In this document: positions 1 to 46,514 of the stretch, piece by piece
How positions within the stretch are numbered: position 1 is the stretch's first letter
Layout of the letters: every line of letters begins with the position of its first letter
IMG/VR virus record: IMGVR_UViG_3300037246_000906
Span: 1-51,961 of that record
DNA from: a virus
Length of the DNA stretch: 51,961 bases
Strand: one strand, 5' to 3'
Position numbers and translations under genes: made by a program
The notes under the pieces: generated by a model
Database searches by the model: none
What the model was told of the DNA's origin: nothing
Seen by the model: the letters and a program-made list of their open reading frames with translations, nothing else

Positions 1-3000
1 GTAATTCATCTCCAAACACTGTGGCTCCTGTATCACCTACGCTAAAATGAACCATGTTTGTTTCGAATCCCATTGTAGGATCTAATGAATATTTTTGAAC
101 TCCATTTGCGTTACTAATAGTCATACCTGTAACACCTCTTACACTAAATGGCATACTTGAATTAAATGATTCTACTGTAATTGGTGTATCTTCATTAATA
201 TCAATTGTTAGTGGTTCACCTGTTGGTTTTTCCTCAACATCTATCGGTTGACTAGTTGGCATTAACTCGTCTAATTCTTCCTCTGCCTCTTCCTTTGGTT
301 CTTCTCTTTCAGATTCTAAATGATCTTCTTGTGCGTTTATTCTTTTAAGTGATTTTCTCTTAATTTCGGCTTCAACAGCTTCAATTGTAGCGATTGGGAA
401 TCCAGCGTGATATACTAGAGAAACCTCTCTAAACTCTGCGCCTTTGATTAATGTGTAACAGTTTTCGTCACATACCTTTGGACTATCACTATCGTAATAT
501 ATACCTAGTGAAACTGCCATATCCATATCATCTATTTCTTTTTGGAAAAATGGATGGTCTACAACTCCTTCATAGAATAATGTTAATTGTTCTGGTTCCC
601 ATCTTAGTGTAACTTCACCAATTTGGAAGTCCTTTTCATTTAATAAGTGATCTTGCATATCGGGATCTAATCTATCCAACTCTGCCTCGGCTCCTGCTAT
701 ACTACTATGATTTAGTAATAGTGGAAGTGTTTTACCGTGTCCTTTTGCAAGTGTTTCTGGTAAGTAAATTCTATCGTTTAGACTTACTCCTGCGTATGCA
801 AGTGTGCCTTTGATCTTTCTACCTTCCCTACTAATTGTTGGTAGCCCATACATTAACTCAACACTTTCACCTGATCTTGCTCTTTTCTGTAATATGTCTA
901 GTTTAGTTTTAATAAATGATTTGTATTTTTTAACATTAGCTTCAAGTGCCTTTGTTTTCTTACATGCACATTTTGGCTTTGATTCTCCTGCTTTTTCGTA
1001 AGCGTGAGATAATTTCCAAGTCATAATAGCTTCCTTTTCACTTTCGGATAAATCACTCCAATTTACCCATTTGTCATGTTCATACCCATCTATCTCTTTC
1101 AATATAAAGTCATCAGTGTGTGATCCAAGATTAAAATAACTATGTCTTACTCTTTCTCCCCACCAATCTCTAATTGCATCATACATGTTACCTTCTTCCT
1201 TTGCATATGACTCATTAGTATAATATGATAATCCACCGTTAGCACCAAAAACGGCACCGTTTTGGTCTAGTAATCTTCCTTCACTTTTTAATTCATTAAC
1301 AATAACCAAATCCATATTAATATTATATTTATCTCTGGCGTCCCATACACTCATTCCCATAATTTCTTCCATTGCTCTCATTACATCATATTGCCTTACG
1401 TGTATAGCTTCATTATAATAACCACCACCTCTTTGGTTTGATTTTACCCAAGAAATTAACTCGTTTTTAATTCTTTCTTTTTCAGCATCAGGTAATGATT
1501 CACTTTCGTCTGCCCAACCTTTTGGGAATTTGAACTCGTGATCATCACCATGGTCTTCATTTGTTTTACCACATGTGTCACACTGTGTATCATTTTTAAA
1601 TTCATTTGCTACACTACCATCATCGTTTAAGTGGTGTATTGATAATGCACTTTGTAGGGTATCTGGTAATTCATCAAATCCCTGCATTTCGGTAATATCA
1701 TCACTATTACCATACCCGAATTTTTCTAGTAAATCATATCGTTTATCATCTCCCATATTACTCCACCAAGAATCTAAATCACCATCATCATATTCTACCT
1801 CGGCAAACTTTGGTTTTTCTGGTGTATCCTCTTTTGGTTCTTGTGGGTTTTCAGTTGGTTGTTGTGGAATTTGGGCTTGACCAGTTTGTTGTTGTGGATC
1901 GTTACCAAATTGATCTGGTGAACCATTGTTAGGTTGTTGGTCTTGTTGTGGATCTTGTACTCCCTGTTGCATTGGATCTACTTGTGCCATTGGATCTACC
2001 ATTGCGTTTGGATCTCCCATTGCCATTGGATCCATTGGGTTTGCACTTTGAACATCGCCAGTTCCGTCACAGTCTGGGCAATCTTTTAATCCCAAGTTTT
2101 CTACGGTAACTTTTCCTGCGCCTTGGCAGAATACACAGTTACCCAATCCCTCTGTTGTATAATATTTATTTTCAAAAACTAAATCACTTGGATGTGGTAT
2201 GTATTTTTCACCTACATAAACTGGTCTGTAAAATACTCCGAATTGATCTTGTATGTAATTACTGTTTAACATGATTCCCTCACCTATTGGTTCACTTGTT
2301 AAATCTTCACTAGTTAAATCATCTTCATCTATTAAATTCTCTTTTGTTTCACTTGGTAATACCATAACGTTATCTTCCTCATCATTTCTAAACTGTGGAT
2401 CGTTTGCCGTCATTGTATCTGCTGGGCCCGAAACACTTGCAAGACTCTCTTCCTTACCATAAGCCTCAGTAGACATTTTTACACCGCCATCTCCTCTCAC
2501 TTTTGTATTTTGACCAATTCTGTGGTATCCCATACTTCCTTTTGCATCATCATCAATATCTTGCCATCTTACAACCTTTTCGGAATGTGGGTTTGATTGA
2601 ATTATTCCCTCTACAGTAACTGGATCATGTTCTTCATCTCCATAATGGAATCCTGTAACAATCATTGTAACATTCCCTGTTTCTCTACCTCTCCATCCAT
2701 TTCCAGTCCATTCTCCCATATTGGTCTCTACTTCATATCTTAGTGTATCACCAACCTTTACCATTTTAGTGTCTTTTTGATCATTCCAATAACCTTTCAT
2801 TTCAGTTACTTCAAAATCATATTTTCTAAATTCACTTGGTGCGTATCCGTCTCCAACAGTGGCTTTTGGATATTTAATATTGGCTTTAACCAGTTCTAAT
2901 CTTGGGTTTTTACTAAATTGGTCTCTACGTCCAATTACCCAGTGACCGTCTTTTACCAAGTCACGACCTTTATTCATTCTTTTTAATCCGTCAAATGCCT

Positions 3001-4699
3001 CGTTTTCGTGTTCATACATCTTTGCCAAAATAGCTCTTGCTTTTTCTCTATTCTTTGGTAAGTTATTATCATCAGTTTTTAAATCAGTGTATTTGTATGC
3101 TAATTGTTTATATTTTACAGTTGCTTTGTTTACTTTTCCACCAACTACAATTTTACCTTTATATTCATCGTCTACAAGGTGTCCCTTTGAGCCTGTGGTA
3201 AACATTTTATCATTTGGGAATTTGAAATACATTTTTGCAAGTCTTTTACTATCCTCTTCATTATACTGCATAACTCCAACTATTCGTTTAACTTTAGAAG
3301 TCTTTGGTTTATCTTTAGTTCCACCACCACTTCCACTAGAAAACTGACCTGTTGATTTATCGTGATTTGGATTACCACCCTCTGCCTCAGTTATGTATGA
3401 TTCATAGCCAGTTATTCCGTATTTTTTATTTGTTGCACCAAACATATCTATTGCTTTTTTATAAAGTCTTTGGTCTTTTTTCTCATAACTGTCATAATCC
3501 TCTTTCAATCTTCTTGATGCTAAATCTAAAATTCTTACTACCTCTTTATCACTAAAATCACCCATCTCTCCATAATCACTCATTACCTCGTACATATCTT
3601 GCTCGGCTTGACTATAACTACTAACACCGTTATCATCCATTCTTCTCTGTGCTAAATCTAAAAGTCTTGCTTTCTGTGGTTTGTTGAATTTATCTAACTC
3701 ACCACCAAGTCCAGTCTTTTTTAAATTCTTACTTCTTTTTGCAAGTCGTGTATGTGTTTCTCTATTTTTTATTTCAGTTTCCTTTTCTGCTTTTGCCATT
3801 CGTATCTTTTCTTTTCTATAATCTTTATCCTCTTTCTTTGTTCTAATATCACTAGCTGTATGCCATTTATCTTTACTTGCTATACGTTTTTTAAGATGAT
3901 CTAAAATTTCTTTTTTACTTACACCTTTTAATTGTTGTATTTGTGTTGGTGTTAGGTCTTTAGCCATATCCCAATTCTTTCCAGCGTCTCTTACAGAATT
4001 AAATTTATCCATTCCATGTCTATTGTTATCGAAAAATCTATCAAGTATCTTTGTTGTTTTAGTGTTAAGTTTCTTATCACCAGATTTTCCACCTCCACTA
4101 CCACTGGTAAATTGACCACTTGCTTTATCATGGTTTGGGTTTCCCTCTTCTTTTGCGAATGATTCATCACTTATACCAATTGCATCGCATTCGGGATCTC
4201 CACACTCTTCAACTCTTTGCACATCGGCAAATATGTGTTTGTGATCTTTGATAAATCTTTTACCACTTGCAGTTCTAATTCCATGTGCAGGGTTTGAATG
4301 ATCATCAATCCATTCACCACCTTCTACGGCTTCGCCTAATGGGTATCCTTCATCTTTTTTCCATTGTTTATAATTAGCATGATAAGTATTGTAAAATTCA
4401 TTAAATGCTCTTTCCCAATCACCATGGAATACTTCATCAACTTCTTTCTGACTTGCTTGATGTTTTTTGAACCATTTCATTTCTTTATCTGGTATTTTTT
4501 CAACGGCTTTGTAAACTTTACCTTCAAATTCTAATAATCTATCGTCTTCGTTTATTGGGTTTTGCTGACCACGTTTTTCTTCCTTTTCCACGTCAGTTAC
4601 CTCGAATCCACTATTACTTCCTTGTGGTGTTTCTAAATCATTATCCAGTGGGATATCTCCACCTTTTGTAGTGGTTAGATCATTTTGTTCGACAGACAT
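1..4699 (-). CDS. Very large virion protein with HK97-type (U35) prohead protease domain, C-terminus beyond window
   Basis: The frame is open for 1566 codons from the ATG at 4699 and runs off the left edge. Residues about 1290-1445 look like an HK97-family prohead protease: start near GVSLNDRIYLPETL, His1331 in LLLNHSS, Ser1397 in MAVSLGIYY, then EFREVSLVYHAGFPIA around Glu1425, the usual order of this serine protease fold. The family trims scaffold and capsid during head maturation and is normally about 200 residues. Here some 1290 residues precede it. They include two copies (about residues 186 and 439) of NPNHDKxxGQF followed by a Ser/Gly stretch, a motif common at domain borders in phage head proteins. 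They also include a DnaJ-like CxxCxGxG zinc motif (about 850-880) and a Q/P/N-rich linker (about 890-960). More sequence follows the protease, so a capsid or scaffold domain may lie beyond the edge. The start overlaps the previous stop (TAATG). Confidence 0.85.
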   Translation of the reverse strand, partial: MSVEQNDLTTTKGGDIPLDNDLETPQGSNSGFEVTDVEKEEKRGQQNPINEDDRLLEFEGKVYKAVEKIPDKEMKWFKKHQASQKEVDEVFHGDWERAFNEFYNTYHANYKQWKKDEGYPLGEAVEGGEWIDDHSNPAHGIRTASGKRFIKDHKHIFADVQRVEECGDPECDAIGISDESFAKEEGNPNHDKASGQFTSGSGGGKSGDKKLNTKTTKILDRFFDNNRHGMDKFNSVRDAGKNWDMAKDLTPTQIQQLKGVSKKEILDHLKKRIASKDKWHTASDIRTKKEDKDYRKEKIRMAKAEKETEIKNRETHTRLAKRSKNLKKTGLGGELDKFNKPQKARLLDLAQRRMDDNGVSSYSQAEQDMYEVMSDYGEMGDFSDKEVVRILDLASRRLKEDYDSYEKKDQRLYKKAIDMFGATNKKYGITGYESYITEAEGGNPNHDKSTGQFSSGSGGGTKDKPKTSKVKRIVGVMQYNEEDSKRLAKMYFKFPNDKMFTTGSKGHLVDDEYKGKIVVGGKVNKATVKYKQLAYKYTDLKTDDNNLPKNREKARAILAKMYEHENEAFDGLKRMNKGRDLVKDGHWVIGRRDQFSKNPRLELVKANIKYPKATVGDGYAPSEFRKYDFEVTEMKGYWNDQKDTKMVKVGDTLRYEVETNMGEWTGNGWRGRETGNVTMIVTGFHYGDEEHDPVTVEGIIQSNPHSEKVVRWQDIDDDAKGSMGYHRIGQNTKVRGDGGVKMSTEAYGKEESLASVSGPADTMTANDPQFRNDEEDNVMVLPSETKENLIDEDDLTSEDLTSEPIGEGIMLNSNYIQDQFGVFYRPVYVGEKYIPHPSDLVFENKYYTTEGLGNCVFCQGAGKVTVENLGLKDCPDCDGTGDVQSANPMDPMAMGDPNAMVDPMAQVDPMQQGVQDPQQDQQPNNGSPDQFGNDPQQQTGQAQIPQQPTENPQEPKEDTPEKPKFAEVEYDDGDLDSWWSNMGDDKRYDLLEKFGYGNSDDITEMQGFDELPDTLQSALSIHHLNDDGSVANEFKNDTQCDTCGKTNEDHGDDHEFKFPKGWADESESLPDAEKERIKNELISWVKSNQRGGGYYNEAIHVRQYDVMRAMEEIMGMSVWDARDKYNINMDLVIVNELKSEGRLLDQNGAVFGANGGLSYYTNESYAKEEGNMYDAIRDWWGERVRHSYFNLGSHTDDFILKEIDGYEHDKWVNWSDLSESEKEAIMTWKLSHAYEKAGESKPKCACKKTKALEANVKKYKSFIKTKLDILQKRARSGESVELMYGLPTISREGRKIKGTLAYAGVSLNDRIYLPETLAKGHGKTLPLLLNHSSIAGAEAELDRLDPDMQDHLLNEKDFQIGEVTLRWEPEQLTLFYEGVVDHPFFQKEIDDMDMAVSLGIYYDSDSPKVCDENCYTLIKGAEFREVSLVYHAGFPIATIEAVEAEIKRKSLKRINAQEDHLESEREEPKEEAEEELDELMPTSQPIDVEEKPTGEPLTIDINEDTPITVESFNSSMPFSVRGVTGMTISNANGVQKYSLDPTMGFETNMVHFSVGDTGATVFGDEL

Positions 4700-5028
4700 T
4701 ATACCTTTATCTCTCTTTTTACGTTAAAAGCATTTTTTCTTATTACTTGGGTTTGAGGCTTTATTTCTGCAATAATCTTACTTTCTCTTTGTATTTTTCT
4801 ATCCCTATCCTCTTTTGACTCGAATCTTTCTGCCAGATCAAGTTCATACTGATTTTTTACAAAAGTTCTACAAGTACATTCTTTTCTTTCTGGTTTTCTT
4901 TCTACTATCTTTCCACATGCAGGCACATGGCTACTATACTTATGTTCACATCTAAAACAGATTCTACTACTACGTGGAATCTTTCTAGCCCATTCAGGAC
5001 GTGTATTTGGTATTTTATTTTTCTTCAT
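4699..5028 (-). CDS. Small zinc-binding protein between portal and protease genes
   Basis: 109 residues from ATG 5028, which overlaps the last 14 bases of the portal gene. The stop shares one base with the next ATG (TAATG), so the three genes are probably co-translated. Residues about 18-50 carry RICFRCEHKY, a His, PACGK and ECTCRTF, a Cys/His set that could hold one or two zinc ions. The rest is basic and predicted helical (RFESKEDRDRKIQRESK). A similar C.C.H / C.C spacing occurs in the protein at 38350-38694. The position between portal and protease suggests a head-assembly helper, but no family is recognised. Confidence 0.75.
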   Translation of the reverse strand: MKKNKIPNTRPEWARKIPRSSRICFRCEHKYSSHVPACGKIVERKPERKECTCRTFVKNQYELDLAERFESKEDRDRKIQRESKIIAEIKPQTQVIRKNAFNVKREIKV

Positions 5029-8000
5029 CGAAATCCTCTTCCTGATCAAATGCGTCATCGGCAATTTCCTCACCAAATTCATCTTCCAATAATTTATGTG
5101 CAGTTTCTTCTGGTACGTTAGCATCAAGTAATTCGTGTTCCCTTTCTATAATATCTTGAACACTTCCTGTAATATTTTTAGGTTCCTCGTCAACTAAGTC
5201 AGTTGCTTCGTCTTTATCCTTATCCACTGTTTCTTTATCTCCACCTTCCTTTTTGGCTTGTTTCTTGTTATCCTTATCGTCTTTTTTAGTATCGGTCTTT
5301 GCCTTTTTCTTTGGTTTTGATTTAGGTTTATCGTCATCTTTTTTGTCTTCGGAGTCAGTTTTGTCTTCGCTTTTCTGCGAATCGCTGTTCTGCGAAGTTT
5401 CCTCGTCTTCCGAATCGTTTATATTAGCGTCACCACTACCTTTACTTTGAGGACTAGAATCCTTTGGCGTATCGGAATCAGCATCAGGTTTAGAACTTGA
5501 TTTAGGACTTGCTTTTTGTTCAGGTTCTTCTAAACCTTGGTCTGCCATTTCAAGTTCTTTTGGGTTTCCATCTTCATCAGTTTCTGTTGGATCTAATGGG
5601 TTATCTTCCTCTGGTGTAAATTCTTCGGGAGTTGTTTCTAGTGTATCCATACTTGGATCGTTTAATTCGGCATTGAATCCGTCTTGTGTCATTGGATCTG
5701 CCATCGGATCTGTTAATGGATCACTCAACTGTCCCTTACTTGCGTCTAGGTGTTGATCATATTCTTCTTTAGTTACAATTTCATATTCAAGTTCTACCTC
5801 TGGTTGTTCCTCATCACTATCAGGTTCTTGGTCAAATCTTAAGTCTGGTACTTCATTACCTTGCTCATCAGTTAAGTCGGTATAATTCATACCAGTTTCA
5901 GGGTCTGTATGTAAAACGTTAGGATCTATTTGTTCCTCATCAATTCCACTATCACTAGGATCGTTTATTGTGTTAGGATCTTGGTCTAATGCAGTTTGAC
6001 CTTCTGGTGTTAATGGTGTTCCACCTAAGCCGTCTAATCCAGCTCTTCCATCATTTTGTTGTATATCTTCTGGTTTTATAATTGCTCCGTCCTCAAGTGG
6101 CTCTCCCTCCTGTTCAAGTGGGTTACTACCGTCTTGGACTTGTTGGCTATTTGGTTTCATGTTAAGTCCTGTGTTATCTAAAATACTATTACTATCATTT
6201 GGTAATAATGGATCCTGTGGTAATCCTGTTTGCTCTTCGTCATGTAATCTCATTTGGCTAGAATCTCCTAGGTTGTTTGTTCCATCTGGATCTGCTGGTG
6301 CTTCAAACTTAGTTGCTTCGTCAGGCATTCCATCATTTGCCATACCATCCAATCCTAATTGTTCTGTTGGCTCTGTATCGAATGGGACTTGGCTTGCATC
6401 CTGTCTTGCTGGGTTAATTCCATTAATGTTACCTTTGTTTGCACTTGGATCGTTTAGTGGTGTATCATCTAATTGGGCTTGACCTTTTTGTGGTTGGTTG
6501 TTTAATTCTGGTGATGGTTCGTCACCTGTTCCGCTGGTAAATGGATCCTCTCCCTCTTTAATATCACGATGCATTACGTTAGGTGCTTCTGGTTTTTGAA
6601 CCTTTGGTTTTTCCATCATTGTAGGCTTTACTGCTTCCTCAAGGTTTTGTCTATCCTCTTTCTTTTTCAATTCTTCTTTATCAAAGTCTGGTGTAAATCC
6701 TTCGCTTGGAACTATTGGTTGTTCGTCTTCATCATTTGCTCCTAGAATCTGTTTATTGGTATTATCTGGTAATGCGTCACTACCACCTGTAACTTTCATA
6801 GTCATATCGGTTGGTGTGTTTGCTATATTGTCTGCTACAAGTGGATCTTTATTCGGCCCTGCGTGTGGGTCTGCGTTGGCTTGTGGTGTATCTGGTGATA
6901 ACTCCATATCATTATTTAAATCGTTAGGGTCTTTGAATGAACCGTCACTGTTTGGATCTATTCCATCATTACCCAATCCTCCTTGTGTATCGTCTCCTGC
7001 CATTCCACCACTTGCTTCTAGGTGTTTGTTATACTCGTCTAAACTAACTTCTGGTACTTCATCAATTTGTGGAATACCTTGGTCGTCTGCGTTTGTAAAT
7101 CTTCCTGCTGTATTATCAGCTGGTTGTAATGCTGGTCTATCTCCACCTCTAGCCATTTTACTTGGGTCGCTTGGTGGTGTTTCACTATCATCTTTATCAA
7201 GTCCATACTCATCCCTAATAGCTGGATCAGTAATTTCAGGTGTTCCATTAATATCATCTAAGCCTTGGCTTACATACAAGTCACTACTACTATTGGAATT
7301 ATCTCCTGCTTTTGGTGGAAGTGGAATTCTTTCTATTGCTTTAATAGCTTCAATTGTTTCTTTAGCAGATAAACCTTCATTTGCAATTTCTTTCATTAAT
7401 CTAGTATGTAGGTTTTCTCCCCTTGGTTTCTTTTCAGGTTGTGGTGTTGTTGTTGGAGTTGGAGTTGGTCTATCCATTTCAAATGGTGACTTTGCACCTG
7501 TTTTTGGTTCACTTACTTTTGGTGCTTGCACTCCACCTTGACTCGCTGGTGCTTTTTGTTTATCCTCACCATCTGCTGGTGGTGTTTTAAATGGATTATC
7601 TCCACTTGCAGGATCTCCTCCTTCACCTTGACCTTGACCTGCAATATCCTGTGTCATTGCGTCCTGCATTTGTATATTCTTTTGATCTTGTTTATCTTGT
7701 TTAAGTTCCTGTTGTTCCTCTTCCCATAATTTGTCGTCTAGTGGGATATTCAATTTTTTATACATTTCTCTAATTTCTTTCTTACTAACTGCTTCTGGGT
7801 CTAAACCTCTAATATCTTCCATTGTAAGTCTCTTCATTGTAGGTGTAAATCCTACCTCAACCTCCATGGCTTCGAAGTCTTGGAATCCCCAACTTTCTGC
7901 TATTGGTTTTAATAATCTATCTTTTATGGTTTCACAAAGCTCACTTTGTAAGTCACCCATTCTTTGATCTAATACATCGAATGGAGTTTGTGAACCTGAA

Positions 8001-8959
8001 TAACTAAATCCTTGTGGATTCTTAATAACGTTAGATGCAAAAATTGTACCAACGTCAATATGGGCATCTACATTATTTCCATATTCGTCAAACTTGCCCT
8101 GTGGTTGAATCTGCAACTCGGCAGATTGAATTGGTTTATCGAAAATCCAAATATATTGGTCTGTGTTAGGATCTGCCATCTCAGCTTGTACTTTATCCAT
8201 TTGGTCTCTTGGCATACCAACTGCACTAACCAGCATTCTTGGTTTTGCCATTTTCTTTTTAATCTCAATTTCTGCGTTTTGTAATTCTGCCTGTGCATCT
8301 AATAGTGGAATACTTTGTCTTGCTGGGTTTATTGCCTCCCCTGTAAATGGATCTATAGTACCTGTAATTGGTCTTGGTGTTGCAAGTGTGTGAAACATTG
8401 ATTTACCAAAAGCCTGTCGGTCTGGGTTGTTAATAGTTGCGTGAATGAAAAACTGAGGATCTAATTCTTTGAAAACACCGTCCACGATTTGAACGATTTT
8501 TAATTCATTACCAAACTGGTCTCTGAATAAACGATAAATTGTCTGCATTGGGATTTGTTCTGTATTACCTAATCTTTGATCAGGTGTATATTGAAGTTCC
8601 ATAATTGCAGAGCCTGTGATTAAAAGTGAAAATATAAATTGTGACCATTTCTTTTCGGAGTTTGTTACGTCCCACCATTTCTCAATAAAAACGTTAAAGT
8701 ATTCATTATTTGATTTAATTTCAATTCCACTACCTCGGAATTTTTGATGCATAACGTCAACGGCAGTTTTTATCTGATCCCAGTGGTGATAATATTGATA
8801 TAATCTTTCAAAGTCAACCTCTGGAAACTCACCGACTAATTGCTTACTCGGGCCGACAATCGTTGCATTTCGCTTTCTAACGATTCCACCTAACAGTGAG
8901 TTAAAGGTCTGAAATACCTTTGGTACGGCTTCTGTTGCCTGTCTTAATCTATCTGCCAT
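5015..8959 (-). CDS. Portal protein with about 900-residue acidic disordered C-terminal extension
   Basis: 1314 residues. Residues 1 to about 415 resemble HK97/SPP1-type portal proteins: an N-terminal helical part, HQKFRGSGIEIKSN, FIFSLLITGSAIMELQY, a stem-like segment with FASNVIKNPQGFSYSG, and a helical end (MEDIRGLDPEAVSKKEIREMY). Portals form the dodecameric DNA channel at one head vertex and are usually 400-550 residues. After about residue 430 the chain is low complexity, rich in D, E, P, N, Q, G and S and poor in aromatics, with a Lys-rich island near 1195-1245. Two related segments, LDEYNKHLEASGG and TKEEYDQHLDASKG, suggest an internal duplication. The tail could serve as a built-in scaffold, which is inference. 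The sequence AGAGGAAAA just before the ATG is a plausible ribosome-binding site. Confidence 0.86.
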   Translation of the reverse strand: MADRLRQATEAVPKVFQTFNSLLGGIVRKRNATIVGPSKQLVGEFPEVDFERLYQYYHHWDQIKTAVDVMHQKFRGSGIEIKSNNEYFNVFIEKWWDVTNSEKKWSQFIFSLLITGSAIMELQYTPDQRLGNTEQIPMQTIYRLFRDQFGNELKIVQIVDGVFKELDPQFFIHATINNPDRQAFGKSMFHTLATPRPITGTIDPFTGEAINPARQSIPLLDAQAELQNAEIEIKKKMAKPRMLVSAVGMPRDQMDKVQAEMADPNTDQYIWIFDKPIQSAELQIQPQGKFDEYGNNVDAHIDVGTIFASNVIKNPQGFSYSGSQTPFDVLDQRMGDLQSELCETIKDRLLKPIAESWGFQDFEAMEVEVGFTPTMKRLTMEDIRGLDPEAVSKKEIREMYKKLNIPLDDKLWEEEQQELKQDKQDQKNIQMQDAMTQDIAGQGQGEGGDPASGDNPFKTPPADGEDKQKAPASQGGVQAPKVSEPKTGAKSPFEMDRPTPTPTTTPQPEKKPRGENLHTRLMKEIANEGLSAKETIEAIKAIERIPLPPKAGDNSNSSSDLYVSQGLDDINGTPEITDPAIRDEYGLDKDDSETPPSDPSKMARGGDRPALQPADNTAGRFTNADDQGIPQIDEVPEVSLDEYNKHLEASGGMAGDDTQGGLGNDGIDPNSDGSFKDPNDLNNDMELSPDTPQANADPHAGPNKDPLVADNIANTPTDMTMKVTGGSDALPDNTNKQILGANDEDEQPIVPSEGFTPDFDKEELKKKEDRQNLEEAVKPTMMEKPKVQKPEAPNVMHRDIKEGEDPFTSGTGDEPSPELNNQPQKGQAQLDDTPLNDPSANKGNINGINPARQDASQVPFDTEPTEQLGLDGMANDGMPDEATKFEAPADPDGTNNLGDSSQMRLHDEEQTGLPQDPLLPNDSNSILDNTGLNMKPNSQQVQDGSNPLEQEGEPLEDGAIIKPEDIQQNDGRAGLDGLGGTPLTPEGQTALDQDPNTINDPSDSGIDEEQIDPNVLHTDPETGMNYTDLTDEQGNEVPDLRFDQEPDSDEEQPEVELEYEIVTKEEYDQHLDASKGQLSDPLTDPMADPMTQDGFNAELNDPSMDTLETTPEEFTPEEDNPLDPTETDEDGNPKELEMADQGLEEPEQKASPKSSSKPDADSDTPKDSSPQSKGSGDANINDSEDEETSQNSDSQKSEDKTDSEDKKDDDKPKSKPKKKAKTDTKKDDKDNKKQAKKEGGDKETVDKDKDEATDLVDEEPKNITGSVQDIIEREHELLDANVPEETAHKLLEDEFGEEIADDAFDQEEDFDEEK

Positions 8960-9009: not shown

Positions 9010-9339
9010 TTATTCGTCAACTGAAAAACCCGTCCATGAACCCATAAATTTGGAACCACTCGGATAATTAGCAACGCCTCTTATTTTCCACCTTCCAGCG
9101 TCTGTAAATAATCCAACCGTATCCGTAAATGTTACTTGACCATCCGTTCCATCTGTTACAAAAGACGCAACTAATTCAGGTAAAACTTCACCTCTTGGTT
9201 TTTGGAGTTCAATTGTTACACTGCTGGTTCCACTCAAATCTACGACTTCCTCCACCCCTGCCACAATTCTGGTAACTGTGGTTGATAAAACGGTTCCTAT
9301 CTGCCCGACTCTTATAAAATCATCAAATGTACTACTCAA
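9010..9339 (-). CDS. Baseplate upper protein (BppU N-terminal, DUF2479)-like small virion protein
   Basis: 109 residues with a TTG start that overlaps the stop of the giant gene as TTGA. The pattern GQIGTVLSTTV, then VVDLSGTSSVTIELQKPRGE, then TDGTDGQVTFTD and GRWKIRGVANYPSG resembles the beta-sandwich found at the N-terminus of BppU-type baseplate proteins and related small tail proteins. The usual family order is a null-to-limit DLSG strand, a lysine-proline turn, a TDGTDG hairpin and a final W.i.g strand. It likely docks a fibre onto the tail. Translational coupling to the giant repeat protein suggests the two work together, for instance as adaptor and fibre. Confidence 0.65.
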   Translation of the reverse strand: MSSTFDDFIRVGQIGTVLSTTVTRIVAGVEEVVDLSGTSSVTIELQKPRGEVLPELVASFVTDGTDGQVTFTDTVGLFTDAGRWKIRGVANYPSGSKFMGSWTGFSVDE

Positions 9340-12300
9340 TTTCCTTCACTATCCTTGATGCGTGTAATGAAATTTAAGCTTATTTTAATTCTAGTAACAA
9401 AGTCCAAGCTGTCCCTAATTACCGTATTCCAATCAAATGTATCCTTAACTATGGTTCCAAATATTATACTATCCCTAATTACTGTATTCCATGATAGATC
9501 ACTCATTCCAAGTATTGTGGTAAATGCTATACTATCCTTAATTGTAGTTCCAAATGATATTCCTTCTCTTATCAAAGTTAGGAAAACAACACTTAATCGT
9601 ATTCTTGTTGGGAATGTTATACTTTCCCTAATTGTTGTATTGAATAATATACTTGGTCTGATTATTGTTGTGAATAATAATACAGATGGTCTTACGAAAC
9701 TTGAGAATAAATCTTCAAATATATCTATTACTGGTTCTATTAATTCTCTAAATAACTCTAATTCTCTTATTATTGTATCATCTACCACAATAGTTTCAAA
9801 TGCACTACCAACGGTTCCTGCGATTCTTACAACTTCATCTATCATATTAATTACTGGTTCATTTATAAATCTGAACAGGTCTGCTATGCCAGTTACAATA
9901 TCATCCACAGTTATTGTGTTAGTTAATATTCTGAATATTTCAATCTGTCTTATAACCTCATCAAGTTGTATAATAGTGTTCAATGGTGTTCTAAACATAT
10001 TCAATACTCTTATAACTTGATCATTTGTTGGAATGAACTGATTAGGAACAACTCTAGATAATGCAATCTTTAAATCGTCTAATGGGTCTAGTGAGTTAAG
10101 CAATATTCTGAATAAGTTAATCTGTCTTACTATATTGTCTGCTCCTATTACGACTGTATCAAACAAATCTGCTGGTCTAATTCTAGTTGCAAGTATTGAA
10201 TCTACTGGGTCAAATAATATGGTTTCTGCTATTGTTCTAAACAATTCAATAGTTCTATCTACAGCGTCATCAAGTATAACGTTGTTAAGTAATGTTCTAA
10301 AGTATGTTTGATTGTATGTTATTACATCGTCTAATACAATAGTGTTTGCTATTACTCTAAATGCTCCTATTACCCTTACCACAACATCACTCAATGCGAT
10401 AACCTCGGCACCAATCATTATTCTAGCATTACCCAGTGTTCTTTGAACTCCCTCAAATGCTGTATTGTTTTCCAACAATATTCTAAACAATTCCAATACA
10501 CGTATAATGGTATCATTTTGTGTAATAGTTTCTGCCAAGTCTCTAAATAATCCCATAAATATTGACTCGCTTAAAACAACAGTTTCTGCCATACTTCTAA
10601 ACATATCTATCTGTCTTATTACAAAGTGTGGGAGTAGTGTAGATTCAATCAGTGTTCTAAACAATACAATTACTCTTATTACTTGATCACTTACTGCAAT
10701 AACTGGTGTATCGTTAATTACCCTAATATTTGCAAGTATTCTAATAACGTCATCACTTAGAACAACTGTATTAAGCAAGATTCTAAAGAATGTCTGGTTG
10801 AATGTTATATTATCGTCTAATATAATTGTGTTAAGTAAAACTCTGAATAAATCAATTTGTCTAATTACATCATCAGTTAAATTAACTGCTTGTTCTGCAA
10901 TAAATCTCAATGTGTTTCTAATACCTGTAACAGTATCACTTAGTGTAATTACCTCTGCACCTATTACTGCTCTAAATAATTCTATAACCCTTACCACAGG
11001 ATCATTAATAACTACCGTATTCAATAACACTCTAAATTCTACCATTAATCTTACTACATCATCACTTAGTGTAATTGTGTTAAGTAAGACTCTGAAATTA
11101 TTTAATACTCTTATCACGTCATCACTTAGTGTTACTATTTCCGCTCCTATCACGTCTCTAAATAATGCTATTGTTGGACTTCCCACATCATCAATAACAA
11201 CATTATTAAGTAACACTCTAAACAAATTAATCTGTCTAATAACATCGTCAGTTAAATTAACTGCTTGTTCTGCAATATCTCTTAATCTATCCCTTACTGC
11301 TATAATCACATCAGATACTGCTATTATATCACCAGTGTTAATTATTCTAAACAAGTTTGCTACATCTGCCAATGCGTCATTTACCACAACATTGTTAAGT
11401 AATACTCTGAATAGGTTAATTTGTCTTACAAGTACTTCTGCTCCAATTATAACATTATTGAATACGATTACTACAGTTAAGTTAATTAATCTTATAATAT
11501 CATCTACAGGTTGTATGTTTTCACTTAATGCTCTGAACATTTCCAACACACGTATAACAGTGTCATTTTGTGTAACAGTGTTAAGTAATACTCTAAATGC
11601 AGTTTGTAGTCTAATTAATGAATCATTAATGATAACTGTTTCTGCAAGGACTCTAAATTGATCAAGTCGTCTAATCACAGCATCGCCTACCACAATAGTA
11701 TCTGCTAATAATCTAAACTGATCAAGTCTTCTAATTACACTTTCTACTGGAATAACGATTGTTTCACTTAATACCCTTGGAACGTCTCTTACCCTTGAAA
11801 TAACATCATTGATAACAACAGTGTTTAATAGTATTCTAAACAATTCAATCTGTCTTATCACGTTATCGAATGTTATATTTGGTACGTTTTCGGCAAGGGC
11901 TCTAAATAAGTCAATTTGTCGAATAACAGCATCACTTACCACAATTATTTCTGCTCCTATTACAGTTCTGAATAAGTCAACGTCTGGATTACCAACATCA
12001 ATAATAACAACATTTTCACTTAATGCTCTGAATAATTCTATAACTCTTATAACACTATCATTTATCGCAACGTTTTCTGCAAGTGTTCTAAAGTTACCTA
12101 CAACTGCTATTAAGAAGTGTGGTAATAGTATATTCTCATTAAGTGTTCTAATATTTGCAAGAACACGTATAACGGAATCACTTAATACAACTGTGTTAAA
12201 TGTTATTCTAAATTGATCTAGTCTTCTAACAACTGCGTCACTAAGTACAACCGTTTCAGATAAGAAGAATCCTAGTGTTGTTGCTATTGTATCATCAAGA

Positions 12301-15300
12301 TTAACTGCTTCACTAATTTCTCTCACCTTACCAGCTATTCTATCTAATACATCATCTAATACAACTGTGTCAAGCATTGTTCTAAACATTACTGTATTTC
12401 TAACAACAACATCAATAACAGTAATATTTTCAATTAATTCTCTAACCACTCCCAATGTTCTAATTACAGCATCGTCTAGTGTTATAATATCACCAGTGTT
12501 AATTATTCTAAACATTTCTAAGATTCTATTAACAGTATCTCCAACTACAACTGTATTCAATAACACTCTAAACTGGTCAAGTCTTCTAATTACATCATCA
12601 CTTAATGTTATTATATCTGCTCCTATAACACTTCTAAACATATCTATCTGTCTTATTACATTATCAGATATTACAACAGTATTAGGTAAAAGTCTTGTTA
12701 TGTTTGTGATAATATTATCAATACCGATAATAACGTTTTCAGACATATTTCTAAAGAAGTCAATTACTCTATCAACATCGTCATTTACCACAACATTGTT
12801 AAGCAACACTCTAAACTGTGTTATACTTCTAATCACTGCGTCATTAACTACAACATTGTTAAGTAGAACTCTAATTAATCCTAACTGTCTTATTACATCA
12901 TCGCTTAATGCAATTATCTCTGCACCAATTATGGCTCTAAACTGGTCAATAGTTCTATTAACAGCATCGTTTATTACAACAGTATTAAGTAATATTCTTT
13001 CTAATGTTATACTTCTAACTACATCGTCACTAAGTGCAATAGTATTAAGTAATATTCTACCTAATCCTAGTGATCTAATAACAGTTTCTACTGGAATTAT
13101 AATAGTTTCTAATGGAACTATTCTAAACATTTCTAATAATCTATCAACACTATCTATCGCATTGGCTACAAATTGTAATATGTTTCTTGGAACGTCTCTA
13201 GCCACTTGTACTATATCTGCTCCTATTGTAACTGTTTCTGCTATTATTCTAAAGAAGTCAATTACTCTAACAACAGCGTCACTAACTGCAATGTTTTCTG
13301 AAAGTGTTCTAAACAACTCAATTACACGTATAACAGTATCGTTTTGTGTTATAGTTTCTGAAATGTTTCTAAGGAAGCTATTTGTTGCAACAACAACATC
13401 GTTAATTACGACTGTTTCACTGATTAGTCTAAACAAATTTGCAATATCTACTACAACATCACTTAACACCACATTATTTGTTAATATTCGTTGTAAATCT
13501 AACCGTCTTATTACACTATCTAAAAGTATAATTGGTGCCTCAAGTGGTGATACAAGTTTATCAGTAAATGATACTTCTAATGGAGTCACTACGAAAATTG
13601 TATTTTCTGCCAAGTTTCTAAACAGTTCCAATAATCTTACAAAGTTATCACTGATCGCTACGTTTTCTGTAACTAATCTTGGAACTCCTCTAATACCTGT
13701 TATTAGATCATCAATTATTTCAACACCACCACTAATAAAGAATCCACTTAAGGTAAATCCACTACCAGTAAATCCTCTTCCCTCAAATATGAATCGGAAG
13801 AATTGAACGTTAGATATAACACCAGATACCACATCTTGTATTGTTACACCTCCACCTGTGAACCCACTAAGTGTAAATCCTTCGGTAAATGCTCTAAACT
13901 CACTTATCACTCTAGATAAAGAAAGTAATCTACCAACACCATCACTTAAACTAATGACTGATTCTGCGATGAATGCTGGTAGATTTTTAATCTTTGCCAC
14001 GTTATCATTGATAATAACGGTTTCTGCTATAACTTTGCCAAGTGCCAATCCTATTGTGTCTATAAATTGAACTCCTCCACCAATAGCGAAGCCACTAATT
14101 GTGAATCCAGTTTGTGTGAATCCACTCGCCTCGTTAATGAATCGGAATAAGTTACCTATATGTTCTATTACATTTAGTGAATCTGTTATTTGTGCTACAT
14201 CTTCCATTGTAAAACCAGTTTGTGTGAACCCACTAATTACGAATCCTCTTGTTGCAGTTAGAATTCTATTAAGTGCTAATATTCTATTTGTTATGTTACT
14301 AACACTAATACTCTCAATTAACCCTCTTCCAAGTCCGCTGATAAGTGTTTCCAATACTCCTACGTTTTCACTTGCTGTTCTTACACTTCCTCTTATTCTT
14401 GCTACAGTATCACCTATAAACACTCCTCCACCCATTGTAAACCCAGCTGTAAATCCACTAATTGTAAATCCTGCACTTTCAAATATATTTCTAAAGAAGT
14501 CTTCTGGTACTATTGCAGTTATTGAATCAAATACATTGGCACCTCCATGTAGGAAGAATCCACTACTAGTAAATCCAGTTGAAATAAAACCTTGAATTTG
14601 TAATAGTATTCTACTCAAAGATAATTGTCTTGTAATTGTATCAAATATTGGTTCAACCTCTAATACATTTCTTATGAATCCAAACTCGTTAATTATTCTT
14701 GCTACAACGTCAGATATTGAAGTTGTATCACCAGTTGTAATATCCCTGATAAACCCTTTAACACCTATTACAACATCACTAATGAATACTCCACCAATAC
14801 CATCACTTATAGTAAATCCACTAAGTTGGAATCCACTAAATGTAAATCCTCGGCTTTCTAATAATCCTCTAAATGCGTCTATTTTTCTTATAACACTATC
14901 ACTAATTACTATGATTTCGGCACCAATTACTGGTCTTAAGAATCCAAACTCGTTAATTATTTCTTCTACAATATCAGATAATATAGTGTTTTCCGTTATT
15001 ATTACATAAGCATTATAGAATCTTGGGAATATGAAGTCATTAATAGCAACTCCTCCACCTTGAACGAATCCACTTAGTGTAAATCCACTTAGACTATATC
15101 CACTACTTTCTGCAATATCTCTAAAGAAGTTCCCTATTCTTGTGGTTCCACCTATAATTTCATCTACAATAACACCTCTATCAATTACAAATCCAGTTTC
15201 AGTAAATCCAGTGTAAACGAATCCACTAATCACACTTATTATTCTGTTAAGGTCAACCTTTCTTACAATTGAATCTAAGAACGATATACCACCCTCAACC

Positions 15301-18300
15301 ATTGTTCTTAATAATGGAATCGTTGCTCTACCTACAATATCGTTATTTGTTATTGTATCTGTGATAAATTTACCTACATCCTTACTAATAGTATCACTGA
15401 TAAATACTCCACCGTCATGGAAGAATCCACTTGATGTAAAGCCAGCAAGTGTGTATCCACTAGATTCGAATATCTCTCTAAATAAGTTCCCAGTATGTTT
15501 TAGAGGTATTACTACATCTGCTACATGTATTCCACCGAAGTTTACAAATCCACTTTCTGTAAATCCAGTAATTGAAAAACCACTCTCCTCTAATATAATT
15601 CTTAGGTTGTTTAACTTTCTACCAATTATGTTAGAAACATTTATAACAGGTTCACCTATATTTCTAATAGCAGATAAGACTTTGGCAATGACGTCTGACT
15701 GTGATATAGTGTCAACAAGGGCTACATTTAATGAAGTAACTCTTGCCACTACATCACCAATAAACACCCCTCCACCGTGTACGAATCCCTCGGTAAATCC
15801 TGTAAGTGTAAAGCCACTAGATTCGAATATTTCTCTAAAGAAGTCGAGACCAGTTTCCACCGTACTAATACTATCTTCAAGTAATACTCCACCCAACTTG
15901 TAGAATCCACTATCAGTAAACCCACTCCAAGTAAACCCTCTAATCTCTACTATATTTCTAAACTGATCAAGTACTCTAATAATAGAATCCACTTGTAACA
16001 CTGTTTCATTTAGAATAGCAAATACATGTCCAATTCCACCTGTGACTACATCATCAGTAAGTAATATTTGATTATCTGTAATATTTTTAAGTTGACCTAA
16101 ACTACCACTAACTGTATCACCTACGAACTGAGTTATATTAATTACAAATCCACTTGCAGTAAATCCACTAACTGTAAATCCACTAACTTCCAATATCTCT
16201 CTAAGTAGGACTATTAATCTATCAACACTATCAAGTGGGTTAATTGACTCTGTCAATGTTCTTGAAAATCCAGCTATTCTTTCAACTATATCGCCTAATA
16301 CTATATTTTCTGATCCAATTACTGTTCTAATTGCTCCAACACTAGATGTTATAATCTCACTAAAGAATACACCTCCACCAGTTGTTTCTGGTGATGTAAA
16401 TCCACTTAAAGCGAATCCAGTTAAAGTAAATCCTCTGGTTTCAAATATGGTTCTAAACATTTCAATAACCCTTACAACACTATCTCCTTGTGTAACAGTA
16501 TCAAATATAGGTCTCACCGTACCAAACAAGTTGATTTGACCTATAACATCATCTAACTGTGTTACTGTATCAATTATAGAATATGAAACTCCTTTTGTTA
16601 TAATATCGAATATCTGCACTCCACCCTGCACGAATCCATCGGTAAATCCTGTAACAGTAAATCCAGTTCCCTCAAATATTGTTCTGAAAAATGCGTGTAT
16701 TGAAGCCTGTCCGTCTACAACATCAGATACAGAAATTCCAAAATTCTCGGTAAACCCACTTAGTGTGAATCCACTAAATGTGAAACCACTAGACTCACTA
16801 ATTGTTCTTGCAAAGTTACTAATTCTATTTACCACATCATCTAACACAGTTGTTTCACTAGCAATTCTTGAGAATGGATCACCAAGTCTACTTATAATAT
16901 CATCTAATATTGTTGTACTACTTGTAACTCTAGTTAGTGTTAGCATTCTGTCTACAACATCACTTACAAACACTCCTCCGTTCTTATAGAAACCACTTGC
17001 TGTGAATCCACTAAGTGAGTATCCAGCAGTTTCAAATATGTTTCTGAAAAAGTCACCACTAGTAACCCTAATTACACTATCACTAACAAATATTCCACCA
17101 AACTTTACAAATCCTTCTGTAAATCCAGTTGCAGTAAAACCACTTTCCTCCAACACAATTCTAAAGTTATCTATCTGTCTACCAATAACTTCTAATGGAA
17201 TAGTAACTGCCTCTGACATTCCATATGTAATTGCTTTCTTTATTGTATCAAGTATTGGTATGTTTTCAGTTGTTATTGTTCTTGTTAATACACTAATTCT
17301 ACTAACCACATCACCCACGAATACACCACCATCATGGAAGAATCCCTCGGTAAATCCAGTTAGGGTAAATCCACTTGTTTCGAATATGTTTCTAATTAAA
17401 TCTACATTTACTATTGAACTAATACTATCATGTATGAATGCTCCACCTTGTAAGAAGAAACCACTAGCAGTAAATCCAGTTGTGGTAAATCCTTGAATTT
17501 CTAAGAATGTTCTAAATTGATCAAGTAATCTAATAACAGTATCATTTTGTGTTATTGTGTCTGCAAAGAATCTTAAGTTTCCAAACTCATTAATTATTTC
17601 TACCACATCATCAGATATTGCAGTTATATCACCAGTGTTAATTTCACCAACAAACCCAAATCCTCTTTCTATAACATCACCAACAGCAACTCCACCAGCA
17701 TATAAGAAACCACTGGCAGTAAATCCACTTAATGTAAAACTGAATGAATCTTCTAATATTGCTCTTAATGAAACCAATAGTCTATCAACTCCATCATCAA
17801 CTACAATAGTTTCAATTGCTGGTCTAAATATACCGAAGAAGTTTATTATTCCACTAACAACGTCACCAGTAGTTATTGTGTTACTGATAATTCTTAATAA
17901 TGAAGTTGCTCTACCTACAATATCATTTATTATAACATCTTCACTTATAACTCCGAATTTAGTGAAACCATTAATTAATTCCTCAACTGGAACTATAACT
18001 GTTTCACCTATTGTTCTAAAACTTGTTATAATTCTAATAATAGGATCGTTGATAACTACATTTTCGGCAACAAATAATATTCTTTGTATTGACTGTGTTG
18101 CTACATCACTAAGTATGATAAAGTCTGTTAGTTGGAATGTATGTAATCCTCTTTGGAATCTAATCTTTCTACCAACCTCATCTAGTAATCCAGTAACACC
18201 GTCTGCGATAAATCTTGGTCTATCTTGGATACCACTTATAATATCACTAATCGCAGTCGCGTGTGTAAAGAATCCAGTTATTGTAAATCCACTAATAGTA

Positions 18301-25487: not shown

Positions 25488-26246
25488 TTATCTAATCAGT
25501 AATCTTAGTTTTCCTCTACGCAAGGCATTTTTTATTCTTGCGTAATGATTAACTCTTGAATACACGCGAGCACCATATTTTGCCACAATTCTACTAATAT
25601 CTCTCACACTTAGTTCTAATCTTGATTTACCAGAATAAAATGCATCCATACTATCCGTTCCATCATTGTTTCCACTAACATCATGTCTTAATCCCAAACT
25701 ATGTCCTAGTTCATGTATCAACACTGCAATTACTGAATATGTTCTTATTGTGTTATCGGGGTTGTTAGTTCCAGTTATCCAACCTTTACTAAGTGCTTTG
25801 CTTGCTTTAATTCCTAATCCCACAAAATCCCAGATATAATCATTGTTAAATACAACTTGACCACTTACGCTACCTTGTGCTGGGAAGTATGCGTATGCCA
25901 AAACACTTGGGCTTTTTTTGAATTGTTCGTCTTCATCTCTTCCTTTAAAATCAATTGTAATATCAGGTTCCTGCGTTCTATTTCCTTTCCACCAAACTGG
26001 CTTGAAAACAATTGGTATTTCCAAGTCCCATGTGGTCATTGCATAGTTTAAGGCTCTTCTTACTTGCCTTTCTGACATAGTTCTACAAGTTCCTATAACC
26101 TCATAATACATTATAGGTTTATCCCATTTTCCTGCCCATTCAGTTTGAGTTTCTATAAACTCCATTTGGACTTTGTTAGAATCGTGTATAGTACATCTAT
26201 AATCAGTAGTTTCAGTTCTACTTGTTCTTCGTCCCATTTTATTCAT
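25488..26246 (-). CDS. Matrixin-like zinc metalloprotease
   Basis: 252 residues. The motif AVLIHELGHSLGLRHD is the HExxHxxGxxH zinc site of metzincins, followed by a SMDAFY segment that could supply the Met-turn. Upstream, RQVRRALNYAMTTWDLEIPIVFK, DITIDFKGRDEDEQF and PAQGSVSGQVVFNND match the N-terminal half of a matrixin catalytic domain. No signal peptide is seen. The C-terminus is very basic (RIKNALRRGKLRLLIR). The first ATG is 26246, but 26237 has a better-placed AAGGATG upstream. It lies beside tail fibres and two small membrane proteins, so cleavage of host S-layer protein at entry or exit, or virion maturation, is plausible. Confidence 0.82.
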   Translation of the reverse strand: MNKMGRRTSRTETTDYRCTIHDSNKVQMEFIETQTEWAGKWDKPIMYYEVIGTCRTMSERQVRRALNYAMTTWDLEIPIVFKPVWWKGNRTQEPDITIDFKGRDEDEQFKKSPSVLAYAYFPAQGSVSGQVVFNNDYIWDFVGLGIKASKALSKGWITGTNNPDNTIRTYSVIAVLIHELGHSLGLRHDVSGNNDGTDSMDAFYSGKSRLELSVRDISRIVAKYGARVYSRVNHYARIKNALRRGKLRLLIR

Positions 26247-45611: not shown

Positions 45612-46514
45612 TTACATATCAACCTCGTCTTTGTCAGGTCTAAGTTCGATAAACCTTGGTAAGTATAATGATTTAGTATCGGTTCCTTTTCGTGTAATAA
45701 CGCCATTATGTTTAATCGCTATTATTGTGTTTAATAACTGTTCTTGTTTACTCCAAATATCTATTCTTTGGGCATCGCTAAATCCAGTTCCAACGTCTAC
45801 CTTAATACTACCATCTTTGTTTTGGGTTTGTATCGCTCCAAGCATTCCACTGGCTTTTCCAGTTCCTTCTGCAAATCCGATAATCTTAAAGTCGACATCA
45901 ATCTCTTCCTTCATTTTAACACATTGTAAGGATCTCTTTGGTTCCCATAAGTGATCTTTATTCTTAAGTATTAATCCTTCTTCGCCTCTACTTACCAAGT
46001 CCATAAATAAGCCTTGAGCTTCTGCCTTATCCTTAACTATCCAAGTTTCCACAATACTAAACAAACTATGCTTTCTCATTTTTTTCAATGATTCTAATCT
46101 ATCCATTCCACCTCTAATAGATTTTTTCAAGTCGAATTCCTTAATGTCTATTATATCCCATAATGTTAATCTAATTTGTTTAACTTCCTCATCACTAATT
46201 GTAGCCACACTATCTACTGCTTTGTGGCATATACCATTTCCAGTTTGCCTATCCATAACTTCGCCTTTATCATCAAGTACGGTTAATTCGCCATCAAGCA
46301 TTACGTTATCCATTTCTTCAAGTATCCCTCCGAAGTGGTGATTCAACTTGATCATTTTCTTACCATTCCTGCTAAACACAGTAACTTCGCCATCACGTTT
46401 TATTACAATTGCACGCATACCGTCCATTTTGACTTGTGCCATTGCTGGAAAGTTAATACGTTTATCCAACTCTCTTGGTGGTGAGATTAACATAACTGGG
46501 AACTTATCAGACAT
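45612..46514 (-). CDS. ATP-dependent DNA ligase
   Basis: 300 residues, a small virus-type ligase. Motif I is VKMDGMRAIV (Lys about 29, the adenylated residue), followed by GKKMIKLNHHFGG, MLDGELTVLDD (motif III-like), EEGLILKNKDHLW (motif IV) and CVKMKEEIDVDF (motif V), then an OB domain with FIELRP. It seals nicks in DNA with ATP during replication or repair. The gene is in the middle of a coupled run of small genes and starts with an 8-base overlap. Confidence 0.87.
   Translation of the reverse strand: MSDKFPVMLISPPRELDKRINFPAMAQVKMDGMRAIVIKRDGEVTVFSRNGKKMIKLNHHFGGILEEMDNVMLDGELTVLDDKGEVMDRQTGNGICHKAVDSVATISDEEVKQIRLTLWDIIDIKEFDLKKSIRGGMDRLESLKKMRKHSLFSIVETWIVKDKAEAQGLFMDLVSRGEEGLILKNKDHLWEPKRSLQCVKMKEEIDVDFKIIGFAEGTGKASGMLGAIQTQNKDGSIKVDVGTGFSDAQRIDIWSKQEQLLNTIIAIKHNGVITRKGTDTKSLYLPRFIELRPDKDEVDM

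What the first reader, a model, noticed from the sequence alone, without database searches (positions are those of the whole stretch)
1..4699. Prohead protease embedded near residue 1300 of an oversized protein
The protease is usually a stand-alone protein or fused to a portal or capsid. Here it follows about 1290 residues with two NPNHDKxxGQF border motifs, a DnaJ-like zinc knuckle and a disordered linker, and more sequence follows. It may be a self-processing polyprotein of head components.
Basis: partly seen in the sequence, partly recalled or inferred. Interest (0 to 1): 0.72.

Follow-up and report, generated by a model that had tools for sequence, protein, structure and literature searches.

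The report
Giant protease-capsid fusion of archaeal virus
A tailed virus, probably of ammonia-oxidising archaea, makes its head-maturation protease inside one very long protein whose first 1270 residues carry a linker motif that other phages use between head proteins and toxin-like cargo; the protease fusion itself is known in this lineage, the enormous front part is not.

Summary
One intact frame (bases 4699 to 2, minus strand, 1566 aa, cut by the contig end) carries a prohead protease at residues 1271-1452: homologous to thaumarchaeal virus proteases, predicted fold matching T4 gp21 (Z 13.2), catalytic His1331 and Ser1397 conserved.

In this lineage the protease is normally fused to the major capsid protein (MCP): 13 relatives have both in one frame, as published for Nvie-Pro1 and NCAV2-Pro1. 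There the protease starts at residue 2-90 and the MCP domain follows 31-294 residues later. Here 1270 residues precede it and the contig ends 114 residues after it, so the MCP most likely lies off the contig.

The two NPNHDKxxGQF copies are real. A viral-contig scan found the motif in 54 stretches; ORFs bearing it are enriched in portals (16-17/56 against 3/55 controls) and often carry toxin or effector domains. I read it as a cargo linker of head proteins. The domains upstream of the protease have no recognised homologue.

The adjacent portal has an 891-residue tail (relatives 0-182). Most likely: a self-cleaved head polyprotein with core or cargo domains facing the prohead lumen. Cleavage is not shown.

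The parts
2..4699 (-). whole open frame, 1566 aa, cut by the contig end
4142..4699 (-). residues 1-186, N-terminal region, no homologue found
4088..4141 (-). first linker motif NPNHDKASGQFTSGSGGG, residues 187-204
   Evidence: motif distribution
3374..4087 (-). residues 205-442, unknown region between the two motifs, possible cargo domain A
   Evidence: position between motifs; no family match
3320..3373 (-). second linker motif NPNHDKSTGQFSSGSGGG, residues 443-460
2465..3319 (-). residues 461-745, unknown region, possible cargo domain B
   Evidence: no family match; single-sequence model unusable
2057..2137 (-). CxxCxGxG pair, residues 855-881, possible zinc knuckle
   Evidence: weak Pfam match
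1805..2050 (-). P/Q/D/N-rich, probably disordered linker, residues 884-965
   Evidence: composition
890..1804 (-). residues 966-1270, unknown region in front of the protease
   Evidence: no family match
344..889 (-). prohead protease domain, residues 1271-1452
707..709 (-). His1331, predicted catalytic histidine (LLNH)
   Evidence: invariant in A6; position of the mutated His of gp21 in 5jbl
509..511 (-). Ser1397, predicted catalytic serine (VSLG)
   Evidence: invariant in A6; position of the mutated Ser of gp21 in 5jbl
2..343 (-). residues 1453-1566, acidic linker after the protease; in relatives the MCP domain follows this stretch
4699..5028 (-). small ORF with Cys pairs between portal and big frame (ATG at 5028), overlapping both neighbours
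5015..8959 (-). portal protein, 1314 aa: portal domain 28-423 plus an 891-residue tail, mostly acidic and of low complexity

Best explanation
This is the head-maturation protease of a tailed virus with an HK97-type head that most likely infects Nitrososphaerales archaea. It is made as part of a protease-MCP fusion, the usual state in this lineage, but behind a 1270-residue front part. Shown: protease homology and predicted fold, the His/Ser pair, lineage, position next to the portal, intact frame, two copies of a linker motif that elsewhere lies between head proteins and cargo domains. Inferred: the MCP continues in frame beyond the contig end; the front part sits in the prohead lumen, serves as built-in core and/or cargo, and is cut off at least in part by the protease, in cis or between neighbours, when the shell closes; the pieces then stay in the head or are digested, leaving mature MCP.
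For: Protease homology to Nvie-Pro1-8 and to L018 at 2e-27; AF2 model with pTM 0.70 and T4 gp21 at Z 13.2, next unrelated chain Z 3.2; His and Ser invariant. 13 relatives carry protease and MCP in one frame, MCP domain 31-294 residues after the protease, whereas only 114 residues remain in the window; no MCP elsewhere in the window while the same model finds L018's. Motif ORFs: 16-17 of 56 are portals, one MuF, one S78 protease with the motif right behind it, many toxin/effector domains, against 3 portals in 55 matched controls. The same motif ends the portal or links it to a separate domain in Nitrososphaera proviruses. Published fusions: PMC6563490.
Against: The MCP itself is not seen. Some relatives carry the protease without an MCP in the same frame (L019, L052, L053, L061) or a separate MCP (L051). 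No effector domain is recognised in residues 1-1270. In most motif ORFs the cargo is C-terminal to the head protein; here it would be N-terminal. A front part of about 140 kDa on every MCP copy would be very bulky (about 58 MDa for 415 copies, own arithmetic), so early cleavage, low yield of the full fusion or internal starts would be needed. Cleavage is not demonstrated.
Confidence: 0.52

Rival explanations
1. The front part is purely a scaffold or core: a greatly enlarged delta-type domain that organises the prohead and is digested completely by the protease. It carries no effectors, and the NPNHD copies are inherited spacers.
For: No effector family matches residues 1-1270; much of it is charged and low in hydrophobic residues; the portal tail next door is likewise acidic and of low complexity; prohead proteases are known to digest core proteins (PMC9958956).
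Against: The linker motif is associated with effector-like domains in other viruses; regions 461-745 and 966-1270 look compositionally globular; no known scaffold has this length or motif (own knowledge).
Confidence: 0.27
2. The MCP is a separate gene beyond the contig end; this protein ends soon after residue 1566 and is a low-copy protease with minor-head or cargo domains, not a capsid fusion.
For: Split or different arrangements occur in the same lineage: L019 has protease 395 aa and MCP 387 aa, L051 an MCP frame without protease, and L052, L053, L061 protease frames without an MCP. Low copy number would remove the bulk problem.
Against: 13 relatives including the closest one, L018, are fused; the linker length left on the contig is still short of, or equal to, the usual spacing, so the lack of an MCP is uninformative.
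Confidence: 0.17
3. Assembly artefact: unrelated genes joined into one frame.
For: Single metagenomic contig; no second copy found; the front part has no homologue.
Against: Uniform codon use and codon-position GC over all 1566 codons in one frame; tight overlaps with neighbouring ORFs; the portal next door is enlarged as well.
Confidence: 0.03

Closest known systems
Protease-MCP fusions of thaumarchaeal proviruses Nvie-Pro1 (FR725450, nvie-Pro1-8) and NCAV2-Pro1
   Same: Homologous protease domain, portal encoded just upstream, protease fused to the capsid protein in the relatives
   Different: Protease at residue 2-90 there, 1271 here; no NPNHD linkers in those fusion proteins (in Nvie-Pro1 and L017 the motif is in the portal instead); MCP part not visible here
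T4 gp21 / S78-type prohead proteases
   Same: Predicted fold (Z 13.2 to 5jbl), His and Ser positions
   Different: gp21 is a stand-alone core protein of 212 residues; here the domain is embedded in a frame of more than 1566 residues
Polyvalent proteins and MuF/portal-effector fusions of phages (Iyer et al. 2017, PMC5512222)
   Same: Very long multi-domain protein linked to head components; linker motif shared with portal and MuF ORFs that carry effector domains
   Different: No known effector domain identified here; partner is the protease, not portal or MuF; that paper reports a paucity of polyvalent proteins in archaea
T4 capsid-targeting sequence of internal proteins and Alt
   Same: Works like it, if the motif is a head-loading signal: short conserved peptide next to head-borne cargo
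   Different: Different sequence, not at the N-terminus, and neither targeting nor cleavage has been shown

Membership tests
Tailed-virus prohead protease (gp21/S78 type) | assemblin-like fold of the prohead proteases | tested here: met
   model pTM 0.70; VIA-align 5jbl Z 13.2, rmsd 2.7, 131 residues; viral library hits mostly prohead proteases
Tailed-virus prohead protease (gp21/S78 type) | catalytic His and Ser | tested here: met
   H1331 and S1397 invariant in A6, at the positions mutated in the gp21 crystal construct
Tailed-virus prohead protease (gp21/S78 type) | third catalytic residue | tested here: inconclusive
   E1425 and S1427 are both invariant in A6; which one corresponds was not resolved
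Tailed-virus prohead protease (gp21/S78 type) | direct match to Pfam Peptidase_S78 | tested here: inconclusive
   two of six alignment members match (best 2e-4), the window sequence itself does not
Tailed-virus prohead protease (gp21/S78 type) | cleaves head proteins | not testable with these tools
   needs biochemistry or virion proteomics
Nitrososphaeria protease-MCP fusion | homologous protease domain in a virus with a related portal gene just upstream | tested here: met
Nitrososphaeria protease-MCP fusion | HK97-type MCP in the same frame after the protease | not testable with these tools
   contig ends 114 residues after the protease; no extending contig found
Polyvalent protein / head-delivered effector fusion | two or more recognisable effector domains in one polypeptide | tested here: inconclusive
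   no Pfam or PHROG family significant in residues 1-1270; folds not determined; not filed as a member
Polyvalent protein / head-delivered effector fusion | linkage to a virion head component in a portal-terminase virus | tested here: met
   fused to the prohead protease, next to the portal; linker motif shared with portal and effector ORFs

The most novel reading that the evidence does not exclude
NPNHDxxxG[RQK]F-SG is a general head-cargo linker or loading signal of tailed viruses, and this archaeal virus has placed two or more such cargo domains in front of its own protease-MCP, so that assembly, cargo loading and release all depend on one self-cleaving polyprotein.
Probability: 0.22. Interest if true: 0.75.

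Novelty: new variant of a known kind. Interest (0 to 1): 0.5.

Why it matters
How tailed viruses load effector proteins into their heads is understood mainly for T4. A short, recognisable motif that lies between portal, MuF or protease domains and toxin-like domains in many unrelated viruses is a concrete, testable candidate for a linker or loading signal, and this window shows it in an archaeal virus in the same polypeptide as the processing enzyme. It also extends the known protease-capsid fusion of thaumarchaeal viruses by more than tenfold on the N-terminal side and pairs it with an equally inflated portal.

Tried and rejected
Relatives of the whole protein in IMG/VR: none. Portal and closer protease scans of IMG/VR: no further relatives. 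Peptide scan to find a contig that extends the window: none. Single-sequence AF2 of residues 456-745: pLDDT 33, unusable. Foldseek against the PDB gave no significant hit, although the second-look aligner ranked gp21 first. PDB sequence searches with the whole protein and with the protease profile: nothing relevant. Cleavage-site reading of the repeated peptide ES[FY]AKEEGN (residues 179 and 1163): kept only as a lead; in the 16-residue comparison it lies within the shuffle range, and the 9-residue identity test does not decide it because masking the NPNHD copies also removes its last residue. Acidic residues in front of NPNHD are not general (17 of 81). Separate internal start for the MCP: weak. 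Frameshift or misassembly: rejected on codon statistics. No paper in the held library contains the motif strings tried. The profile contains the window sequence. Control ORFs come from the same contigs and were matched on strand and length, not on phylogeny. One ORF may match two portal families, hence 16-17.

Full report
CHECK OF THE OBSERVATION. The minus-strand frame 4699..2 is open for 1566 codons from an ATG and runs off the contig; the window is an entire 51,961-base viral record. Codon statistics are uniform along the frame and the other two frames are full of stops, so as far as sequence can tell it is one gene. The two NPNHDK..GQF.SGSGGG copies start at residues 187 and 443.

WHOSE VIRUS. 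The only match in annotated phage records is the Nitrososphaera viennensis provirus Nvie-Pro1: its protease/MCP protein matches residues 1288-1443 (5e-13) and its portal matches the neighbouring gene (2e-4). Among 398 genomes of the phylum of a Nitrososphaera MAG, seven match the big protein; among 300 genomes of the order, 16 match the portal; among 400 genomes of the class, nine match the protease profile. The closest, L018 (G303:C7), shares portal (4e-65), protease (2e-27) and an M10 metallopeptidase (3e-39) with the window. Host order Nitrososphaerales is inferred from these relatives; the 34.7% GC would suit Nitrosopumilaceae (own knowledge).

THE PROTEASE. An alignment of the window domain with five relatives (A6) gave an AF2 model with pLDDT 69.6 and pTM 0.70. 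VIA-align puts T4 gp21 first at Z 13.2 with rmsd 2.7 over 131 residues; the next, unrelated chain has Z 3.2. The library of viral structures returns mostly prohead proteases, including those of the haloarchaeal viruses HSTV-2 and ChaoS9. H1331 (LLNH) and S1397 (VSLG) are invariant in A6; in the crystallised gp21 the corresponding His (LNH) and Ser (VSS) are changed to Ala. Pfam S78 is hit by two of the six members but not by the window sequence. Activity is inferred.

FUSION IS THE RULE, THE FRONT PART IS NOT. With domain models run on all collected ORFs, 13 relatives carry protease and MCP in one frame of 471-779 aa; the protease starts at residue 2-90 and the MCP domain begins 31-294 residues after its end. 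Krupovic et al. 2019 (PMC6563490) already describe such fusions in Nvie-Pro1 and NCAV2-Pro1. Four frames carry the protease without a detected MCP (L019, L052, L053, L061) and L051 has an MCP frame without the protease, so splits occur. In the window the protease starts at residue 1271 and only 114 residues follow before the contig ends, so absence of an MCP is expected. Models of MCP and TerL find nothing elsewhere in the window while they find the genes of L018. The portal next door has 891 residues behind its portal domain; in the relatives the tail is 0-182 residues. Residues 1-1270 match nothing in the relatives except the motif region 175-265, which matches the end of the portal of L017.

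THE LINKER MOTIF. A DNA pattern for NPNHDxxxG[RQK]F[AST] (38.4 bits, about 0.05 chance matches per 10 billion bases) matched 54 stretches of the viral collection. The motif lies in open frames, often several times in one: L083 has a 1446-aa frame with four listed copies, L110 a 1473-aa frame with four. Among 56 such ORFs Pfam finds 16-17 portals, one MuF, one S78 protease with the motif directly behind it (L064), and cargo-like domains: ADP-ribosyltransferases, Ntox50, Zeta toxin, Acb1, PBECR2/3, CdiA_C, DUF6883, topoisomerase IB. ORFs of similar length on the same strand of the same contigs gave 3 portals in 55 (Fisher p 0.001-0.002) and few toxin-like domains. In Nitrososphaera proviruses the motif lies in the portal tail of Nvie-Pro1, and in L017 it links the portal to a domain that is a separate gene, nvie-Pro1-13, in Nvie-Pro1. 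The motif is therefore best read as a linker or loading signal of head-borne cargo; this is a correlation, not a demonstrated function. I found no paper on it in the held library.

MECHANISM. Shown: domain order, fold and lineage. From the literature: T4 gp21 digests the prohead core, trims internal cargo proteins and cuts the MCP (PMC9958956), and SPN3US keeps more than 40 MDa of ejected proteins in its head (PMC7411985). Own knowledge: in HK97-type heads the MCP N-terminus and the portal C-terminus face the lumen. Inference: both giant extensions are lumenal; the front part serves as core and/or cargo and is severed by the protease. Copy number is the main difficulty: 415 copies of about 140 kDa would be about 58 MDa, so early cleavage, low yield of the full fusion, or an internal start would be needed. 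An SD-like GAGGTG precedes Met1526, and a perfect AGGAGGTG lies between protease and MCP in L006, but in the window 3 of 162 internal ATGs have such a site anyway.

MEMBERSHIP AND NOVELTY. The domain is a prohead protease by fold and catalytic pair. The protein belongs with the Nitrososphaeria protease-MCP fusions by homology and gene order, with the MCP itself untested. It is not filed as a polyvalent protein, because no effector domain was recognised. Hence: a new variant of a known kind.

LIMITS. Residues 1-1270 have no homologue and no usable fold. The MCP is predicted, not seen. Cleavage is not demonstrated. The motif ORFs include some from related contigs.

Noticed in passing
window 9336-21029 (-): A 3897-aa frame made of many degenerate repeats (GFTxxGFT units, then units like NTVVINDxVIRxxxxFR); probably a fibre or adhesin of the tail. 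It occupies the place before the Ig-like ORF and the portal.
   Followed up: no
window 25488-26246 (-): M10 (matrixin-like) metallopeptidase, 1e-20 in Pfam; its homologue in L018 lies directly upstream of the portal.
   Followed up: partly
loci L064-L117: NPNHDxxxG[RQK]F-SG motif in 54 stretches of viral contigs, between portal, MuF or protease domains and toxin-like domains; apparently undescribed in the held library.
   Followed up: partly
L051:2560-4137: A 526-aa frame between portal and a separate MCP that seems to combine a protease-like start, a MuF-type Cys/His end and an ALARLSQ-type helix region: another fusion state of the same module. The protease part was judged by eye only.
   Followed up: no
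L006:8280-8302: Perfect AGGAGGTG six bases before an in-frame ATG between protease and MCP: possible internal start that would make MCP without the protease.
   Followed up: no
window 45612-46514 (-): ATP-dependent DNA ligase (phrog_114, 3e-77) whose best relative among 201 genomes of the order is 42% identical on a 49-kb contig that shares no other gene with the window.
   Followed up: partly
window 5015-7690 (-): The portal tail holds two similar peptides (DEYNKHLEASGG and EEYDQHLDASKG) within a low-complexity acidic stretch; the similarity is within the range of shuffles.
   Followed up: no
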